Below, piece by piece: positions 35,376-43,805 of a DNA stretch of 64,000 nucleotides. The notes beneath the pieces are model-generated. The model had not been told where the DNA came from and searched no databases. It saw nothing but the letters and a program-made list of their open reading frames with translations. Numbering within the stretch: position 1 is the first letter of the stretch; every line of letters begins with the position of its first letter. Location of the stretch: the NCBI GenBank assembly GCA_021798985.1, contig JAJZBI010000019.1, forward strand, positions 1 to 64,000. The letters run 5' to 3'. Source of the DNA: Actinomycetes bacterium (lineage in GTDB: Bacteria > Actinomycetota > Acidimicrobiia > Acidimicrobiales > Bog-793). The position numbers were made by a program, and so were the translations under genes.

Positions 35376-35459
35376 ATGGGAGATTTCCTCGTGGTGATCG
35401 GGATCATCGCCTTCGCCGCGGCGATGCTGGCGATGATCGCCGGGCTGGAGCGCGTATGA
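35376..35459 (+). CDS. 27-residue single-helix membrane peptide heading the kdp operon
   Basis: ATG at 35376 opens MGDFLVVIGIIAFAAAML followed by AMIAGLERV and a TGA stop that overlaps the kdpF ATG by four bases (ATGA). The peptide is one hydrophobic helix with a charged end. It differs from KdpF, which is the next gene. From memory, similar unnamed peptides ending in a C/L-x-R-L/V motif precede kdpF in several phyla, which would argue that it is translated. Overlap with kdpF implies translational coupling. A role in assembly or stability of the KdpFABC complex is only a guess. Confidence 0.6.
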   Translation: MGDFLVVIGIIAFAAAMLAMIAGLERV

Positions 35460-35545
35460 CACCGGTCCAAGGACTCTTGCTCGCGCTGTCGATCCTCGTC
35501 TTTTGCTACCTCGGCGTAGCGATGTTCAAGCCGGAGAAGTTCTGA
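35456..35545 (+). CDS. kdpF: K+-transporting ATPase subunit F
   Basis: A 29-residue peptide, MTPVQGLLLALSILVFCYLG followed by VAMFKPEKF, the exact length of KdpF and ending in the typical PEKF. It is a single transmembrane helix that stabilises the KdpABC complex in the membrane. Its stop overlaps the kdpA start (TGATG) and its start overlaps the stop of the preceding peptide, so the three small cistrons are translationally coupled. Confidence 0.88.
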   Translation: MTPVQGLLLALSILVFCYLGVAMFKPEKF

Positions 35546-37233
35546 TGGGCTTCTTTTGGACGATCGTCGCCCTCGTCGTGGTGCTCGGGCTCAGCTGGCG
35601 CTACCTCGGCAGCTACCTCGCAGCGGTCTTCGACGGCCGCGTGCACTTCCTCGGGCCGATCGAGCGCGGCATCTACCGCGTCGTCGGCGTCGACCCCGAC
35701 CGCGAGCAGTCCTGGCAGCGCTATGCCGCTTCGCTCGTCGTCTTCTCGGCGATCTCGATCGCGCTCACCTACCTCATCTTCCGGATCCAGGGCTCGCTTC
35801 CGCTCAACCCCCAGCACCTCGGCGCCGTCCCCCCCGCGCTCAGCTTCAACACGGCGAGCTCGTTCGTCACCAACACGAACTGGCAGAACTACGCGGGCGA
35901 GACGACCATGTCGTACTTCTCCCAGATCGCCGCGCTCACGACCCAGCAGTTCGTGACCCCGGCGGTCGGCATCGCCGTGGCGATCGCGCTGGTGCGCGGC
36001 TTCTCGCGCCACGGGGCGAGCACGATCGGGAACTTCTGGGTCGACATCACGCGCTGTTTGCTCTACGTCTTGATCCCGATCGCCTTCTGCTTCGGCATCA
36101 TCTTCGTGGCCCAGGGTGGCGTGCAGACCCTCGCCGGCCCCGTCACCATCCACGACCACCTGAACGGCGTCAGCCAGACCATCCCGCGCGGCCCGATCGC
36201 GTTCATGGAGGCGATCAAGCAGCTCGGGACCAACGGTGGCGGCTTTTTGAACGCGAACTCGGCCGCACCTTTTGAGAACCCGACCGGCCTCACGAACTTC
36301 TTGTCGATCTATCTCGTCTTGGTGCTGCCCTTCTCGCTCACCTACACCTTCGGCAAGATGGTCAACAGCGTGCGTCACGGTGCCGCCTTGCTCGCCGCGA
36401 TGGTCATCATCTTCGGCTGCTGGGTCGGATACACGAGCTATGCCGAGCATCAGGGGAACCCGGCGGTCGCCGCTGCGGGGGTGCACCAGAGCACCGGCAA
36501 CACCGAGGGCAAGGAGGTCCGCTTCGGCGACACGAGCTCCGCCCTGTTCGGCGTCGCCTCGACGAGCACCTCGACCGGCTCGGCGGACGCGTCCTATGAC
36601 TCGTTCACGCCGATCGGCGGCATGGGCCTGATGAGCGGGATGATGCTCGGCGAGGTCACCCCGGGAGGTGACGGCAGTGGGCTGTACACGATCCTCGTCT
36701 TCGCCATCGTCGCCGTGTTCATCGGCGGCTTGATGATCGGAAGGACCCCAGAGTTCCTCGGCAAGAAGATCCAAGCCAGAGAGATCAAGCTCGCCGGCCT
36801 CGCCTCGCTCGTCATGCCGCTCACCGTCTTGGTGCTCACCGCCATCGCGGTGTCGCTCCACGCCGGCCGGGCCGGTCCCTTGAACGCCGGGCCGCACGGC
36901 TTCAGCGAGATCCTCTACGCGCTCACCTCCCAGGGCAACAACAACGGCTCGGCCTTTGGCGGGCTGTCGGGAAACACCGCCTTCTACAACATCGTCGGGG
37001 CGATCGACATGTTGGTCGGCCGGTTCGCGATCATCATCCCCGCCCTCGCGCTCGGTGGGGCGCTCGCGCAAAAGCAGCCCGTCCCCGCCTCGGTCGGCAC
37101 CTTCCGGACCGACACGCCGATGTTCGTCGGCCTCACCATCGGCGTGATCTTGATCATCGGCGGCCTGACCTTCTTCCCCGCCGTCTCGCTCGGCCCGATC
37201 GTCGAGCAGCTCAGCCACCACCGCTTCTTTTGA
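35545..37233 (+). CDS. kdpA: K+-transporting ATPase, channel-like subunit A
   Basis: A 562-residue protein of about ten helices belonging to the SKT superfamily of potassium channels. It selects K+ and passes it to KdpB. The four selectivity-loop repeats are visible: [39 protein letters not shown], a [20 protein letters not shown] region and [19 protein letters not shown]. Length and motif order are complete. The start is set by the TGATG overlap with kdpF. Confidence 0.97.
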
Positions 37234-37250
37234 CCGGAGCATTGCGCGAC

Positions 37251-39341
37251 ATGACCGACACCCAAGCCCGCGACCCCCAGCCGCCGTCGACGGAGCTGAG
37301 CCAGCCGATCGCCCGGGAGCCCCGCGGCGTCGCCCAGGCACGCAGCCTCTTCGACCGAGCGATCCTGCGCCAGGCGATCATCGAGGCGTTCAAGAAGTTC
37401 GACCCGCGCGTCCAGATCAAAAACCCCGTGATGTTCGTCGTCTTGATCGGGACGGTCGTCAGCCTGATCGAGGCGATCGTGCACCCTGGCCTGTTCGCCT
37501 GGTCGATCACCGCCTGGCTGTTCGGCACGGTGGTCTTTGCCAACTTCGCTGAGGCCATGGCCGAAGGACGCGGCAAGGCCCAGGCGGACACGCTGCGCAA
37601 GATGCGCGCCGAGACCGAAGCCCGCCGTCTCGATCCACAGGGAACAGAAGAGCGGGTCCCCGCCTCTTCGTTGACCAAGGGCGACCTCGTCGTCTGCGAG
37701 GCCGGCGACCTCATCCCCTCTGACGGCGACATCATCGAGGGGATCGCCTCGGTCGACGAGTCGGCGATCACCGGTGAGTCCGCGCCGGTCATCCGCGAGT
37801 CCGGAGGTGACCGCTCGGCGGTCACGGGCGGCACCAAGGTCCTCTCGGACCGCATCGTGGTCAAGATCACGGCCGAGCGGGGCAACACCTTCATCGACCG
37901 GATGATCAGCCTCGTCGAGGGCGCCAGCCGCCAGAAGACGCCGAACGAGATCGCCCTCACGATCCTGCTCGCCGTCCTCACGATCGTGTTCCTCCCCGTC
38001 GTCGTCGTGCTCGAGCCCTTCGGCCACTACGCCGGTGCCGGCGTCTCCGTCGTCGTCCTCGTGGCGCTGCTCGTCTGCCTCATCCCCACCACGATCGGCG
38101 CCTTGTTGTCGGCGATCGGCATCGCCGGCATGGACCGCCTCGTCCAGCGCAACGTGCTCGCCATGTCCGGGCGCGCCGTGGAGGCGGCCGGTGACGTCCA
38201 GACGCTGTTGTTGGACAAGACCGGGACGATCACCCTCGGCAACCGGATGGCCTCGGCCTTCTACCCCGTCGGCGGCCACAGCGAGGAGGAGCTTGCCGCG
38301 GCGGCCCAGCTCTCCTCGCTCGCCGACGAGACCCCCGAGGGCCGGTCGATCGTCGTGCTCGCCAAGGAGCGCTTCAACATCCGCGAGCGCGACCTCGGAC
38401 CCGACCACACCTTCGTGCCCTTCACCGCCCAGACGCGCATGTCTGGCCTCGATGTCGATCACCGCCAGATCCGAAAGGGCGCCGCCGAGGCGGTGAAGCG
38501 CTGGGTCGCCGAGCAGGGCGGCACGCCCCCCAGCGAGCTCGACGCCATCGTCGAGCGCGTGGCACGGGCGGGTTCCACCCCGCTCGCGGTCGCCGAGGGC
38601 GGCGACGTGCTCGGGGTCGTCGAGCTGAAGGACGTCGTCAAGCAGGGCATCCGGGAGCGCTTCGACGCGATGCGCCAGATGGGGATCCGCACGGTGATGA
38701 TCACCGGCGACAACCCGCTCACCGCCGCGGCGATCGCCGAGGAGGCGGGCGTGGACGACTACCTCGCCGAGGCCACCCCCGAGGCCAAGATGGCCCTCAT
38801 CCGCTCCGAGCAAGAGGGCGGCAAGCTCGTCGCGATGACCGGGGACGGGACCAACGACGCCCCCGCCCTCGCCCAGGCCGACGTCGGCGTGGCGATGAAC
38901 ACCGGCACGACCGCCGCCAAAGAGGCCGGGAACATGGTCGACCTCGACTCGAACCCGACCAAGCTCATCGACATCGTCGAGATCGGCAAGCAGCTGTTGA
39001 TCACCCGCGGCGCCCTCACGACCTTCTCGATCTCCAACGACGTGGCGAAGTACTTCGCCATCATCCCGGCGCTCTTTGTCACCACCTATCCCCAACTGCA
39101 CGCCCTCAACATCATGCGGCTGCACAGCCCCCAGAGCGCAGTGCTGTCGGCGGTGATCTTCAACGCGTTGGTGATCATCGCCTTGATCCCACTGGCCCTT
39201 CGCGGCGTGCGCTTCAAGGCCGCCTCGTCTTCGGCGATCCTGCGCCGCAACGTCTTGATCTACGGGATCGGCGGGCTGATCACGCCGTTCATCTTCATCA
39301 AGGCGATCGACCTGATCCTCGTCGCGCTGCACTGGTACTGA
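37251..39341 (+). CDS. kdpB: K+-transporting P-type ATPase, catalytic subunit B
   Basis: A 696-residue P-type ATPase that powers K+ uptake. The phosphorylation motif is [14 protein letters not shown], the actuator loop [11 protein letters not shown], the hinge [20 protein letters not shown], and the membrane aspartate helix [14 protein letters not shown]. The T-G-E-S loop contains the serine by which KdpB can be inhibited in E. coli. ATG 37251 is preferred; TTG 37230 in the same frame would add seven residues and overlap the kdpA stop, which coupled genes sometimes do. Confidence 0.97.
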
Positions 39342-39350
39342 GAGGTCACG

Positions 39351-39950
39351 ATGCTCATCTTGCTCCGCCGCTCTGTGGTCTTCGCCGTCGTGATGATGGC
39401 GGGCACGCTCGTGTACGCGTTCATTGGCACGGGGGTGGCTCAATTGTTCTTCAAGAACCAGGCCAACGGGTCGATCACCGCCAACGGATCGACCCTGATC
39501 GGCCAGAACTGGAAGAGCCCCGCCTTCTTCCACGGCCGCCCAGACGATGCCGGGCCGTATGCGACGAATCTCGCCAAGCACATCCCGGGCGGTGACAACC
39601 CGCTCGTCGCGAACGGCGTCCCCGGAGCCTCTGGGGGGACCAACCTCGGCCCGCGCTCCAAGGTGTTGTTGGACAACACCAAGGCGCTCGTCGCCTACTG
39701 GCACGCCATGGGCGTCAACCCGACCCCGGACCTCGTGACGACCTCGGCGAGCGGCTATGACCCCGACATCTCGCCGGCGGACGCGACCGCCGAGATCCCG
39801 ATGGTCGCCAAGGCGACGGGGATCGCACCAGCCACCTTGGCCTCGCTGATCAACAAGGAGACGCACGGGCCCGAGCTCGGCTTCCTCGGCGCGAGCTACA
39901 TCGACGTGCTGCAGCTGAACGAGGCGCTCGTGGCGCTCGAGCACCGCTGA
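39351..39950 (+). CDS. kdpC: K+-transporting ATPase subunit C
   Basis: A 199-residue protein with one N-terminal membrane helix (RRSVVFAVVMMAGTLVYAFI) and an extracytoplasmic domain. Conserved parts are SPAFFHGRPDDA, GASGGTNLGPRSK, TTSASGYDPDISPADA and LNEALVAL at the end. KdpC stabilises and assists KdpB. It follows kdpB by nine bases and has GAGAGGT upstream of its ATG. Confidence 0.96.
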   Translation: MLILLRRSVVFAVVMMAGTLVYAFIGTGVAQLFFKNQANGSITANGSTLIGQNWKSPAFFHGRPDDAGPYATNLAKHIPGGDNPLVANGVPGASGGTNLGPRSKVLLDNTKALVAYWHAMGVNPTPDLVTTSASGYDPDISPADATAEIPMVAKATGIAPATLASLINKETHGPELGFLGASYIDVLQLNEALVALEHR

Positions 39951-39960
39951 GGAAAGCGAG

Positions 39961-40281
39961 ATGGGACCGATCGATCCATGGGGCGTGCGCCGTGACGGCA
40001 TCGAGCGCTGGCCCGATCCCCAGCCGCTCGGGACCATCCTCGAGCGAAGGCGCTGTTGTGCCGAGGCGACGGTCGTCGCGCTAAGGAGCAGCCCGCGCCC
40101 GCCATGCTTCACCGCGACGGTGGCCGAGGACGGCGCCCGGGTCGACCTTGTCTTTCTCGGCAGGACCCAGGTGCCGGGCATCGCGGTCGGTGCCCGGTTG
40201 CGCTTCGCCGGCACGGCGGGGCGATCCAACGGCCGGCTGTCGGTCTTGAACCCGCGCTACTGCTTCCTCGAGGAGACCTGA
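39961..40281 (+). CDS. Small OB-fold protein linked to the kdp operon
   Basis: A 106-residue protein. Residues about 25-105 have the alternating beta pattern of an OB fold: LGTILERRRCCAEATVVALR, FTATVAEDGARVDLVFLGRT, VPGIAVGARLRFAGTAGRSN and LSVLNPRYCFLEE. From memory, OB-fold proteins of this type lie next to trk-type potassium genes in mycobacteria (around Rv2694c), so association with K+ uptake genes may be general. It follows kdpC by ten bases and is in the same operon. Biochemical role unknown; nucleic acid or nucleotide binding would fit the fold. Confidence 0.65.
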   Translation: MGPIDPWGVRRDGIERWPDPQPLGTILERRRCCAEATVVALRSSPRPPCFTATVAEDGARVDLVFLGRTQVPGIAVGARLRFAGTAGRSNGRLSVLNPRYCFLEET

Positions 40282-40293
40282 GTGCGCGAGGCC

Positions 40294-40980
40294 TCACTCG
40301 GCGACGAGCTGGTAGCCGATGCCGGGGTGCGTGCGCAGCATCGTGCCGTCCCAGTCGCCGAGCTTGCGACGCAGGCGATGGGAATAGACGCGCAGGTAGT
40401 GCGTCTCTTGTTGATACTGCGGGCCCCAGACGTGCTGCAAGATGAGGTGGTGGGTGCAGACCTTGCCGGCGTTCTTCGCGAGGTAGGCGAGCAGGTCGAA
40501 CTCTCGTGCAGTGAGCTCGAGGCTGCGGCCGTTGTGGCTCGCCTCGTGGTGGACGAGGTCGATCACGAGCGAGCCCACGACGAGGCGCTGGGCCTCCTCG
40601 GCGCGCCCGGGCTGCTGCGCCTCGGCGTGGCGGAGCGCCACGCGAAGGCGCGCCTCGAGCTCGGGCATGGAGAACGGCTTGGTGACGTAGTCGTCGGCTC
40701 CACTGTCGAGCGCCTGGATCTTGCGCTGCTCCTCACCGCTCGCCGACAGCACGATGATCGGGGCGCCAGAGAACGAGCGAATGCGTCGGCAGACCTCGAT
40801 CCCGTCCACGTCGGGCAGGCCGAGATCGAGCACCACCACGTCGGGCTGGGAGAGGGCGGCCTGGACGACCCCGTCCTCGCCGTTGCCGGTCGCGACGAGC
40901 GCGTAGCCACGGGCCTGGAGGCCGATCGAGAGCGCCTTGCGCAAGGAAGGGTCGTCGTCGACGACGAGGATCTTGGCCAT
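40294..40980 (-). CDS. kdpE: Response regulator KdpE
   Basis: A 228-residue OmpR-type regulator. The receiver domain reads MAKILVVDDDPSLRKALSIG, with phospho-acceptor Asp in VVVLDLGLPDVDG, and Lys in DDYVTKPFSMPELEAR. The winged-helix domain has LTAREFDLLAYLAKNAGKVC, LQHVWGPQYQQETHYLRVYS and LRRKLGDWDGTMLRTHPGIG, the KdpE-specific pattern. It should activate kdpFABC when K+ is low. It is nine bases downstream of the kinase gene on the minus strand and converges with the kdpFABC operon. Confidence 0.95.
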   Translation of the reverse strand: MAKILVVDDDPSLRKALSIGLQARGYALVATGNGEDGVVQAALSQPDVVVLDLGLPDVDGIEVCRRIRSFSGAPIIVLSASGEEQRKIQALDSGADDYVTKPFSMPELEARLRVALRHAEAQQPGRAEEAQRLVVGSLVIDLVHHEASHNGRSLELTAREFDLLAYLAKNAGKVCTHHLILQHVWGPQYQQETHYLRVYSHRLRRKLGDWDGTMLRTHPGIGYQLVAE

Positions 40981-40989
40981 CGCCCGCCC

Positions 40990-42591
40990 TCAGCCCGCCC
41001 GCCGCGGCGAGACGACCCCGCGCGCCTCGCCGGGCTCGTCGAGCGCGCTGGGCTCGGCCAGCTTCAAGGAGAAGACGAAGCGTGCCCCGCCACCGGAGCG
41101 ATCCTCGAGGCGGACGCGCTCGCCGTGGGCCTCGACGAAGGCCTTCACGATCGCGAGACCGAGCCCGGCGCGCCCGGCCCCGCTGGTCTTGGAGTACATC
41201 GAAAAGACGCGTTCCCGATCGGCCGGCGCGACGCCCGGGCCGCGGTCGGCGACCGAGATCTCGACGCGCCCGCCCACCTGGCGCGAGGACACCTCGATCG
41301 CGCCGGCCTCGGGGGCGTGCAGCGCCGCGTTGTCGAGCAGGTTGGTCAGCACCTGGACGACGAGCGCGTGGTCGGCGAGCACGAGCGCCTCGGGCTCTTC
41401 GAGCTCGACGACGAGCCGTCCGGGGACCTCGGTGCGAACGAGCGCCTGCACCGCCTCCTCGACCAGCTCGGCGAGCACGGCGGGCTCGGGCCGCGCCGCC
41501 AGGGCGCCGCTTTGGATGCGGGTCATGTCGAGCAGGCTGGTCACCAGCCGGGCGAGGCGGTCGGACTGGGACTCGATCAGGCCGAGGAGCTCGTCGCGGT
41601 CTCTCGCCAGCAGCGACGCGCCGAGCTCACGCAGATCCGACACCGCCGCGGTGATCGTCGCGAGCGGCGTGCGCAGGTCGTGGGAGACCGCGCCCATCAG
41701 CGCCCGCTGCCACCGCTCGGCCTCGGCGAGCACCTCGGACTCGATCACCTGGGCGCGCAGCCGTGCCCGCTCGAGGGCGAGCGCCGCCTGGTTGGCATAG
41801 GTGGACAGCAGCTGGCGCTCATCAGCCCGCAGTGCCCGGCCGACGACCACGAGCGCCCCCACCGCCTCGCCCATCGCCACGAGCGGGACCGTCACGCGCT
41901 GGCGCCCGGGCAGCCGGCCGCCGAGGCGCACCGGCGGGCTGACGCGCACCAAGCTGGCCGGGGTGCCGAGCGTGCTGCCGAGGAGCGAGAGCGCCGTGGC
42001 GTCGATCGCCTCGCCGACCGCAGCACCGACCCGCAGGCCCGCGCCCTGGCCGTGGGCGAGCAGCAGCGCCACCCCGTCGAATCCGAAGGCGCCCTGCAGT
42101 GTCGAGGCGATGACGTGGGACAGCTGGTCGAGCGGGCGCTCGGTGATCAGCACGTCGGAGAGTTCAAAGAGCCGGCGTGCCGAGTCCGCGCGCTGGGCCG
42201 CCTCGGCGCGCACCGCCTGGAGGCGGGCGACGATGCGGGCGACCGCCACCATGACGGCGAGGTAGACGGCGAGCGCGAGGTAGTTCTGCCGGCTGCCCAC
42301 GCTCAAGGTGCCATAGGGCGGGATGAAGAAGTAGTCGTAGGCGAGAAATCCTCCCGCCACCGCCACGAGACCGGCCTGGAACCCGCCGATCCCCACGCCG
42401 ATCACGACCGGGACGACGAGCACGAGCGCGCAGGTGGCCTCGGCGAGATGGGCACGGAACGGGACGAGGATCGCCACCACCACCGCGATGCCGGCGAGCG
42501 CGGCGAGCGAGCCCCACAGCGCCTGGATGCGGCGCATCGGTGGCTTGGCGCGCTGCTCGAGGCGCCACCACTTCAGCCGGCGCAGGTCCAC
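40990..42591 (-). CDS. kdpD: KdpD-like sensor kinase, membrane/kinase half only
   Basis: A 533-residue protein that starts where the second half of normal KdpD (about 900 residues) starts. Four closely packed helices of the DUF4118 type (ALWGSLAALAGIAVVVAILV ... FLAYDYFFIPPYGTL ... LALAVYLAVMVAVARIVARL) are followed by a GAF-like domain, HisKA with phospho-His in GAVSHDLRTPLATITAAVSD, and HATPase_c with NLLDNAALHAP, DRGPGVAPADRERVF and GRAGLGLAIVKAFVEAHG. The N-terminal KdpD ATP-binding and USP domains are missing here but are encoded as a separate divergent gene 26 bases away. The GTG at 42591 or ATG at 42537 may be the start. It is in an operon with kdpE. Confidence 0.92.
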   Translation of the reverse strand: MDLRRLKWWRLEQRAKPPMRRIQALWGSLAALAGIAVVVAILVPFRAHLAEATCALVLVVPVVIGVGIGGFQAGLVAVAGGFLAYDYFFIPPYGTLSVGSRQNYLALAVYLAVMVAVARIVARLQAVRAEAAQRADSARRLFELSDVLITERPLDQLSHVIASTLQGAFGFDGVALLLAHGQGAGLRVGAAVGEAIDATALSLLGSTLGTPASLVRVSPPVRLGGRLPGRQRVTVPLVAMGEAVGALVVVGRALRADERQLLSTYANQAALALERARLRAQVIESEVLAEAERWQRALMGAVSHDLRTPLATITAAVSDLRELGASLLARDRDELLGLIESQSDRLARLVTSLLDMTRIQSGALAARPEPAVLAELVEEAVQALVRTEVPGRLVVELEEPEALVLADHALVVQVLTNLLDNAALHAPEAGAIEVSSRQVGGRVEISVADRGPGVAPADRERVFSMYSKTSGAGRAGLGLAIVKAFVEAHGERVRLEDRSGGGARFVFSLKLAEPSALDEPGEARGVVSPRRAG

Positions 42592-42617
42592 GCGATCGAT
42601 CCTAGGGCGGGCATCTG

Positions 42618-43805
42618 GTGAGCCAGGGTGCAGATCCTCGCGCCGCGCACCTCGACGAGGACACCGCCGACACCGTCGCCGCGGCGGGAAAGTTCCGGCT
42701 GTACATGGGTGCGGTGGCTGGCGTCGGAAAGACGTGGGCCATGCTCGACGAGGGCTGGAGGCGCCACCAGCGCGGCCGCGACGTCGTTGTGGGCTTCGTC
42801 GAGACCCACGGCCGTCTCCACACGGCCGAGCAGCTGCGCGACCTCGAGCTCGTCCCCCGCAAGGTCGTCGAGTACCGCGGGGCTCGCTTTGAGGAGATGG
42901 ACCTCGACGCCGTCCTCGCGCGCAAGCCCGAGGTCGCGCTGATCGACGAGCTCGCGCACACCAACGTCCCGGGATCGGGCCGGCACGCCAAGCGCTACGA
43001 GGACGTCTTGGAGCTCCTCGCCGCCGGCATCTCGGTGATCTCGACCGTCAACGTGCAACATCTCGAGAGCATCGCCGATGCCGTGGAGACGATCACCGGC
43101 GTGGCGGTGCGCGAGCGCGTTCCCGACTGGGTCGTGCGCAACGCCGACCAGCTCGAGCTCGTCGACTCCTCCCCCGAGCAGCTGCGGCGGCGGATGCTGC
43201 ACGGCAACATCTACCCAAACGAGAAGGTTCCCCAGGCGCTCAACGGCTTCTTCCGCCAGGAGAACTTGACGGCACTGCGCGAGCTCGCGCTGCGCTTTGT
43301 CGCCGATGAGACCGAAGAGGACCTGCTCGCTTTCCTCGCCCGGCACCACCAAGCGGCCGTGTGGGAGACGGCCGAGCGCATCATGGTGGCGGTCACCGGC
43401 GCGCCGGGCATCGACGCGGTGGTGCGGCGCGCGGCGCGCATCGCAGCGCGCGCCAAGGCCGAGCTGCACGCCGTCCACGTGCACGACGACGAGGCGCCGC
43501 GCGCCAAGGAGGCGCTCGCGGAGGCCCGCACGGTCGCGAGCGACGTGGGGGCGCACTGGCACGACGTCCAGGCGAGCGATCCCGCGCTCGGCCTGGTGCG
43601 CTTCGCCGGCGAGCACCAGATCACCCAGATCGTCCTCGGCTCGTCGCGCCGCAGCCGCTGGCACGAGCTGACGAGCGGCTCGGTCGTCCGCCGCGTGCTG
43701 CGCTTTGCCGCCGATGCGGGGATCGACGTGCACGTGATCGCCCGCCGTGACCACCGCGGGGACGCCGAGGGGACGGCGGCGCCCGAGGAGCGGGACGAGG
43801 ACTGA
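42618..43805 (+). CDS. KdpD N-terminal sensor half (ATP-binding + USP domain) as a separate protein
   Basis: A 395-residue soluble protein equal to the cytoplasmic N-terminus of KdpD. Residues about 20-235 are the KdpD domain: FRLYMGAVAGVGKTWAMLDE (Walker A), VVGFVETHGRL, ALIDELAHTNVPGSGRHAKR (Walker B region), and LRRRMLHGNIYPNEKVPQAL. Residues about 250-380 are a universal-stress-protein domain (RIMVAVTGAPGIDAVVRRAA ... QIVLGSSRRSRWHELTSGSV). It ends in an acidic tail without membrane helices or kinase core. It is divergent from the kinase half with only 26 bases between the starts. It must act in trans to control that kinase, or in another pathway. Confidence 0.93.
   Translation: MSQGADPRAAHLDEDTADTVAAAGKFRLYMGAVAGVGKTWAMLDEGWRRHQRGRDVVVGFVETHGRLHTAEQLRDLELVPRKVVEYRGARFEEMDLDAVLARKPEVALIDELAHTNVPGSGRHAKRYEDVLELLAAGISVISTVNVQHLESIADAVETITGVAVRERVPDWVVRNADQLELVDSSPEQLRRRMLHGNIYPNEKVPQALNGFFRQENLTALRELALRFVADETEEDLLAFLARHHQAAVWETAERIMVAVTGAPGIDAVVRRAARIAARAKAELHAVHVHDDEAPRAKEALAEARTVASDVGAHWHDVQASDPALGLVRFAGEHQITQIVLGSSRRSRWHELTSGSVVRRVLRFAADAGIDVHVIARRDHRGDAEGTAAPEERDED

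What the first reader, a model, noticed from the sequence alone, without database searches (positions are those of the whole stretch)
40990..43805. KdpD sensor split into two proteins encoded on opposite strands
In most bacteria KdpD is one chain of about 900 residues: ATP-binding KdpD domain, USP domain, four helices, GAF, kinase. Here the KdpD-USP half (395 residues, Walker A intact) is a plus-strand gene and the membrane-kinase half (533 residues, all kinase motifs intact) is a minus-strand gene, their starts only 26 bases apart. Both halves look functional, so the split came with inversion or rearrangement rather than decay. The sensor must work in trans, and the halves can be expressed at different ratios from overlapping divergent promoters. 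Short KdpD N-terminal proteins are known in cyanobacteria, but this divergent pair beside kdpE and kdpFABC is unusual.
Basis: partly seen in the sequence, partly recalled or inferred. Interest (0 to 1): 0.68.

Follow-up and report, generated by a model that had tools for sequence, protein, structure and literature searches.

The report
Conserved two-gene KdpD potassium sensor
The potassium sensor KdpD, one protein in E. coli, is encoded here as two proteins on opposite strands; this is an old, stable arrangement shared by most KdpD-bearing bacteria of the order, of a kind already described, in which one piece probably switches the potassium pump off directly and the other switches its genes on.

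Summary
In detail: a 395-aa KdpD-USP gene (42618-43805, +) and a 533-aa four-helix/GAF/kinase gene (40990-42591, -) face away from each other with 26 nt between their GTG starts, beside kdpE and kdpFABC, and the genome has no other KdpD domain. It is not an oddity or an assembly fault. In a 397-genome sample of the order, 82 of the 137 genomes with a KdpD domain have the short form; 81 of the 82 also have KdpA and about 74 have the matching kinase. Both halves form single clades (support 1.0 and 0.97). The divergent pair is the commonest layout (43 loci, including the isolate Acidithrix). Separate KdpD/Usp and TM/GAF/kinase chains were reported in 2024, with the short chain an atypical serine kinase that inhibits KdpB. 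All catalytic residues of that kinase are intact here. "The sensor must work in trans" is therefore not required: two independent outputs are likelier. One new twist: where diadenylate cyclase is lost, one clade (9 of 9 genomes) carries Asp at the USP position where Ser-to-Asp abolishes c-di-AMP binding in S. aureus. In passing: an unannotated 27-aa membrane peptide overlapping kdpF, conserved across Actinomycetota.

The parts
42618..43805 (+). KdpD-N: soluble KdpD domain (res 23-231) plus USP domain (253-362), 395 aa; predicted atypical serine kinase for KdpB
   Evidence: Pfam PF02702 5.3e-91, Usp 4.8e-12; GKT, Trp39-, Asp109-Glu110- and Arg190-equivalents all present; no hydrophobic segment; match to solved KdpD domain 2r8r E 6e-62
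40990..42591 (-). KdpD-C: membrane (DUF4118), GAF and histidine kinase, 533 aa; predicted KdpE kinase/phosphatase
   Evidence: Pfam DUF4118, GAF_3, HisKA, HATPase_c; kinase motifs and hydrophobic segments
42592..42617 (.). 26-nt space between divergent starts; holds the K -10 and probably overlapping N promoter elements
   Evidence: spacing of about 18-26 nt recurs in other families of the order
42599..42604 (-). TAGGAT, -10-like hexamer 7 nt upstream of the K GTG (leaderless start)
   Evidence: TANNNT at 6-8 nt before an in-frame K start in 12 of 40 divergent pairs versus a shuffle mean of 1.5, maximum 5 in 500 shuffles
40294..40980 (-). KdpE response regulator, directly downstream of K
   Evidence: Response_reg and Trans_reg_C; best NCBIfam match KdpE, below its cut-off
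35456..35545 (+). kdpF, 29 aa (MTPVQGLLLALSILVFCYLGVAMFKPEKF)
   Evidence: frame seen; Pfam KdpF 1.8e-7
35545..37233 (+). kdpA (ATG start inferred at the end of kdpF; the listed ORF begins at TTG 35503)
   Evidence: TIGR00680 2.3e-209
37230..39341 (+). kdpB ORF; TGES at residues 181-184 is the predicted target of KdpD-N
   Evidence: TIGR01497; motif
39351..39950 (+). kdpC
   Evidence: PF02669 2.2e-43
35376..35459 (+). 27-aa hydrophobic peptide upstream of kdpF, stop overlapping the kdpF start (ATGA)

Best explanation
KdpD works here as two separate enzymes for one pump. The soluble KdpD-USP chain (N) is an atypical serine kinase that phosphorylates the Ser of the KdpB TGES motif and shuts the pump off when K+ (or its messenger) is high. 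The membrane chain (K) senses K+ through its TM/GAF part and phosphorylates or dephosphorylates KdpE to set kdpFABC transcription. The two are transcribed from overlapping divergent promoters, so their amounts can differ. Shown here: domains, catalytic residues, gene order, monophyly and co-occurrence. Inferred from published work on E. coli and D. geothermalis: the serine-kinase reaction, the KdpE reaction and the direction of control. The signal for N is unknown: c-di-AMP is possible in this genome (one diadenylate cyclase), but the Firmicutes c-di-AMP motif is mostly missing.
For: Catalytic residues of the serine kinase (GKT, Asp109, Glu110, Arg190 equivalents) are kept wherever those columns are covered, with one GKS exception; the Trp39 position varies. 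Isolated KdpD-NTD and the short D. geothermalis KdpD phosphorylate KdpB Ser162, and species with separate ASK and HK chains are reported (PMC11018627). Split N occurs with KdpA in 81 of 82 genomes and with K in 73 by search, plus G098 by inspection. N without K occurs with KdpA, as in G151, which fits an independent job for N. Several genomes keep N just downstream of kdpC with K unlinked (G004, G022). N and K are each one clade.
Against: No biochemistry on any member of this order. N-K coevolution (partial r 0.26 given E, A and B) is about as strong as K-E (0.30), which would also fit physical partnership. The Trp that stacks on adenine is replaced by Y, C, V or F in many members, though Trp is kept in the window protein.
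Confidence: 0.75

Rival explanations
1. The two chains assemble into one KdpD-like complex: N docks on K in trans and sets its kinase/phosphatase balance, as the N-terminal region does in E. coli.
For: Near one-to-one co-occurrence of N and K across the order, also when unlinked; correlated trees (Mantel N-K 0.82; partial 0.26); tight divergent pairing in 43 loci.
Against: N also occurs without K (G151 and genus g58). Co-occurrence is equally explained by both serving the same pump. Other phyla pair short KdpD with unrelated kinases lacking DUF4118, so docking on a KdpD-C half is not general.
Confidence: 0.2
2. Artefact: assembly error or recent decay of an ordinary fused kdpD.
For: The window lies in a draft genome of 71 contigs.
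Against: Same split in a congener (92% and 86% identity), in dozens of independent assemblies including isolate Acidithrix ferrooxidans PY-F3, with intact motifs and clade support of 1.0 and 0.97.
Confidence: 0.01
3. The short chain is controlled by c-di-AMP in this genome, as in D. geothermalis, so the pump has a second-messenger off switch separate from K+ sensing by K. (This refines the best explanation rather than excluding it.)
For: The genome has a DAC-domain protein (C67:159360-159692). Ser/Thr at the S244-equivalent is kept in 57 of 58 split N proteins from cyclase-bearing genomes; the departures fall mostly in cyclase-less lineages (12 of 13 tips, 4 of 5 independent events, event-level P about 0.036). 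S244D abolishes c-di-AMP binding in S. aureus USP (PMC8214093).
Against: Of the five-residue Firmicutes motif only Ala242 is kept, with Thr in place of Ser244; M. tuberculosis USP, keeping one of five, barely binds. 14 cyclase-less N proteins keep Thr.
Confidence: 0.4

Closest known systems
Split ASK/HK KdpD: KdpD/Usp chain plus TM/GAF/DHpCA chain (Silberberg et al. 2024, PMC11018627)
   Same: Same two chains with the same domain cut, with KdpE and KdpFABC present
   Different: The paper stresses Acidobacteriota and Chloroflexota; here a whole actinobacterial order, with a close divergent layout rather than ASK downstream of the pump, and members lacking diadenylate cyclase
Deinococcus radiodurans kdpBAC-kdpD-N with opposite-strand SK/RR operon (PMC5716572)
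   Same: Short KdpD-N plus a separate kinase/regulator operon in the opposite direction
   Different: There KdpD-N lies downstream of kdpC and the kinase operon diverges from the pump genes; that kinase matches no DUF4118 or GAF model, so it is not a clear KdpD C-half
NCBIfam NF038185 KdpD-like non-kinase potassium sensor
   Same: Best NCBIfam hit of the N chain over its full length (E 8e-113)
   Different: 377 bits, below the curated cut-off of 550
Fused KdpD of Actinomycetota and Enterobacteria
   Same: All domains, in two pieces
   Different: One chain there; actinobacterial fused KdpDs fall outside the split clade in both trees

Membership tests
Split KdpD (ASK chain plus TM/GAF/HK chain) | Separate chain with KdpD plus Usp domains and no kinase domains | tested here: met
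Split KdpD (ASK chain plus TM/GAF/HK chain) | Separate chain with TM, GAF, DHp and CA domains | tested here: met
Split KdpD (ASK chain plus TM/GAF/HK chain) | Walker A and B and adenine-contact residues of the serine kinase | tested here: met
   GKT, Trp39, Asp109-Glu110 and Arg190 equivalents in the window protein
Split KdpD (ASK chain plus TM/GAF/HK chain) | Substrate KdpB with TGES present in the genome | tested here: met
Split KdpD (ASK chain plus TM/GAF/HK chain) | Phosphorylation of KdpB by the short chain | not testable with these tools
   needs purified proteins
c-di-AMP-binding KdpD-USP | (A/G/C)XSXSX2N...(Y/F) motif | tested here: not met
   VAVTGAPGI: only Ala242 kept, Thr for Ser244, Ala for Ser246, no Asn249 (motif)
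c-di-AMP-binding KdpD-USP | Diadenylate cyclase in the genome | tested here: met
NF038185 KdpD_non_kinase | Score over the curated cut-off of 550 bits | tested here: not met
   377.4 bits
Single-chain KdpD | All domains on one polypeptide | tested here: not met

The most novel reading that the evidence does not exclude
In this order the free KdpD-N serine kinase has changed its input: lineages that lost diadenylate cyclase replaced the c-di-AMP-contacting Ser/Thr of the USP domain by Asp (as in ATP/AMP-binding USPs) and now gate the pump by adenylate level or by the partner membrane chain, a c-di-AMP-independent off switch for KdpFABC.
Probability: 0.25. Interest if true: 0.55.

Novelty: new member of a known kind. 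Interest (0 to 1): 0.35.

Why it matters
It extends the two-chain KdpD design to a large actinobacterial order where it is the usual form, and gives natural pairs (cyclase-bearing and cyclase-less, linked and unlinked, with and without the kinase half) with which to ask how the free serine kinase that shuts off KdpFABC receives its signal, a question left open by the 2024 work.

Tried and rejected
One region request was too long and was repeated. A leaderless -10 for N was sought: only 4 of 40 against a shuffle mean of 1.2 (9 of 500 shuffles reach it), weak. Direction of the split (fission or never fused) could not be rooted: no split chains from Acidobacteriota or Chloroflexota were available, and the single Klebsiella outgroup is on a long branch. 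Coevolution as proof of an N-K complex was dropped: partial correlations are similar to other kdp pairs and no species tree was available as a control. No paper in the library mentions both KdpD and Acidimicrobiia.

Full report
Observation. The window carries an intact 395-aa KdpD-USP gene (42618-43805, +) and an intact 533-aa DUF4118/GAF/HisKA/HATPase gene (40990-42591, -), with 26 nt between GTG starts. kdpE (40294-40980, -) follows the kinase gene; kdpF, A, B and C lie on the plus strand from 35456. kdpF is not in the first ORF list but is clear in a finer one and by Pfam. The whole genome has one KdpD domain and no second copy of the kinase half.

Is it an error? No. A congener has both halves at 92% and 86% identity in the same layout, and independent assemblies from many groups, including the isolate Acidithrix ferrooxidans PY-F3, have it too. 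Named relatives are labelled Acidimicrobiaceae, Acidimicrobiales or simply Actinomycetes, mostly metagenome assemblies.

How common. In 397 genomes of the order, 137 have a KdpD domain at E up to 1e-30; I counted 82 with the short, unfused form, from the loci read and otherwise from open-frame length. 81 of these also have KdpA and 73 the kinase half by search; G098 was missed by that search but has the kinase, so 74. The exceptions lacking the kinase are mainly genera g58 and g114 and G093, some of which also have a fused KdpD. Gene order varies: divergent N/K pair (43 loci), kinase-kdpE-kdpABC-N in one direction, kdpABC-N with the kinase elsewhere, and N alone. The divergent pair is thus the commonest layout here, not unusual.

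History. In a tree of 114 N proteins the split ones form one clade with support 1.0, with two irregularities: a Dormibacterota protein (L083) falls in, and G194, whose N belongs with the fused lineage, falls out. In a tree of 90 kinase halves all 66 split ones form one clade with support 0.97. The split state is therefore old and mostly inherited, while gene order has been reshuffled inside it. I could not root the trees well enough to say whether one chain was cut or two were never joined; the 2024 authors favour later fusion.

Mechanism. Silberberg et al. [quoted passage not shown] geothermalis does the same and is stimulated by c-di-AMP, and that some species keep serine-kinase and histidine-kinase chains apart. 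Residues needed for this reaction (GKT, Asp109, Glu110, Arg190) are kept in the split proteins aligned, apart from truncated entries and one GKS; the window protein also keeps Trp39. KdpB has the TGES target, though TGES is common to P-type ATPases in general, so its presence is a weak test. The simplest reading is two enzymes with two outputs: N on KdpB, K on KdpE. A trans complex is possible but not needed. Tree distances of N and K correlate (0.82), but partial correlations given KdpE, A and B are modest (0.26, against 0.30 for K-KdpE), so they do not decide.

Input of N. The window genome has a diadenylate cyclase, but the USP domain keeps little of the Firmicutes c-di-AMP motif. Across 85 split N proteins the S244-equivalent is Ser or Thr in 57 of 58 from cyclase-bearing genomes (one Ala). 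Asp, Asn or Leu appears only in genomes without a detected cyclase: nine with Asp forming one clade (support 1.0), plus Asn twice and Leu once. In S. aureus USP, S244D abolishes c-di-AMP binding and leaves about half of AMP binding (PMC8214093). At the level of independent events this is 4 of 5, P about 0.036, so it is suggestive only. Cyclase absence is judged on draft genomes, but nine of nine missing in the Asp clade is not plausibly incompleteness.

Promoters. The K start has TAGGAT 7 nt upstream in the window genome and its two congeners (TTG start in G001), and a TANNNT at 6-8 nt before an in-frame K start occurs in 12 of 40 divergent pairs, against a shuffle mean of 1.5. Spacing of about 18-26 nt between starts recurs in distant families, and in G178 one near-palindrome, CTAGTATAG, offers a -10 to both genes. 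Overlapping divergent, partly leaderless promoters are therefore likely; this is from sequence only.

Novelty. Two-chain KdpD of exactly this domain cut is published; this is a new, well-populated member group. Deinococcus and cyanobacterial short KdpDs examined here sit beside kinases that lack DUF4118 and GAF matches, so the present pair is closer to the Acidobacteriota/Chloroflexota type described in the paper than to those.

Noticed in passing
window 35376-35459 (+); L233, L229, L108, L095 and others: A 27-aa hydrophobic peptide (MGDFLVVIGIIAFAAAMLAMIAGLERV) whose stop overlaps the kdpF start (ATGA). Same position in 45 of 64 kdpA loci by a strict pattern, with related peptides in Streptomyces, Nocardioides and Rhodococcus; no Pfam or NCBIfam family; substitutions by codon position 1158/817/2267, as for a coding gene. 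Candidate unannotated small subunit or regulator of the Kdp pump.
   Followed up: partly
window 39961-40281 (+): A 106-aa ORF between kdpC and kdpE, conserved beside kdpC in many relatives; no significant Pfam match itself, while a homologous ORF in L038 matches an OB-fold domain weakly.
   Followed up: partly
L162 4033-4422 (genome G013, contig C84): Broken remnant of the N gene at the divergent site next to an intact kinase half, while an intact N lies on another contig (C30, L163): relocation or replacement of the N gene.
   Followed up: no
L222 8004-9062 (genome G194): A short KdpD-N whose closest relatives are fused KdpDs, lying beside a kinase half of the split clade: apparent mixing of modules.
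   Followed up: no
Acidimicrobiaceae family f1 (20 of 35 genomes): No diadenylate cyclase domain detected in 20 of 35 genomes of the family, including all members of genera g3, g5, g7 and g18, suggesting loss of c-di-AMP signalling.
   Followed up: partly
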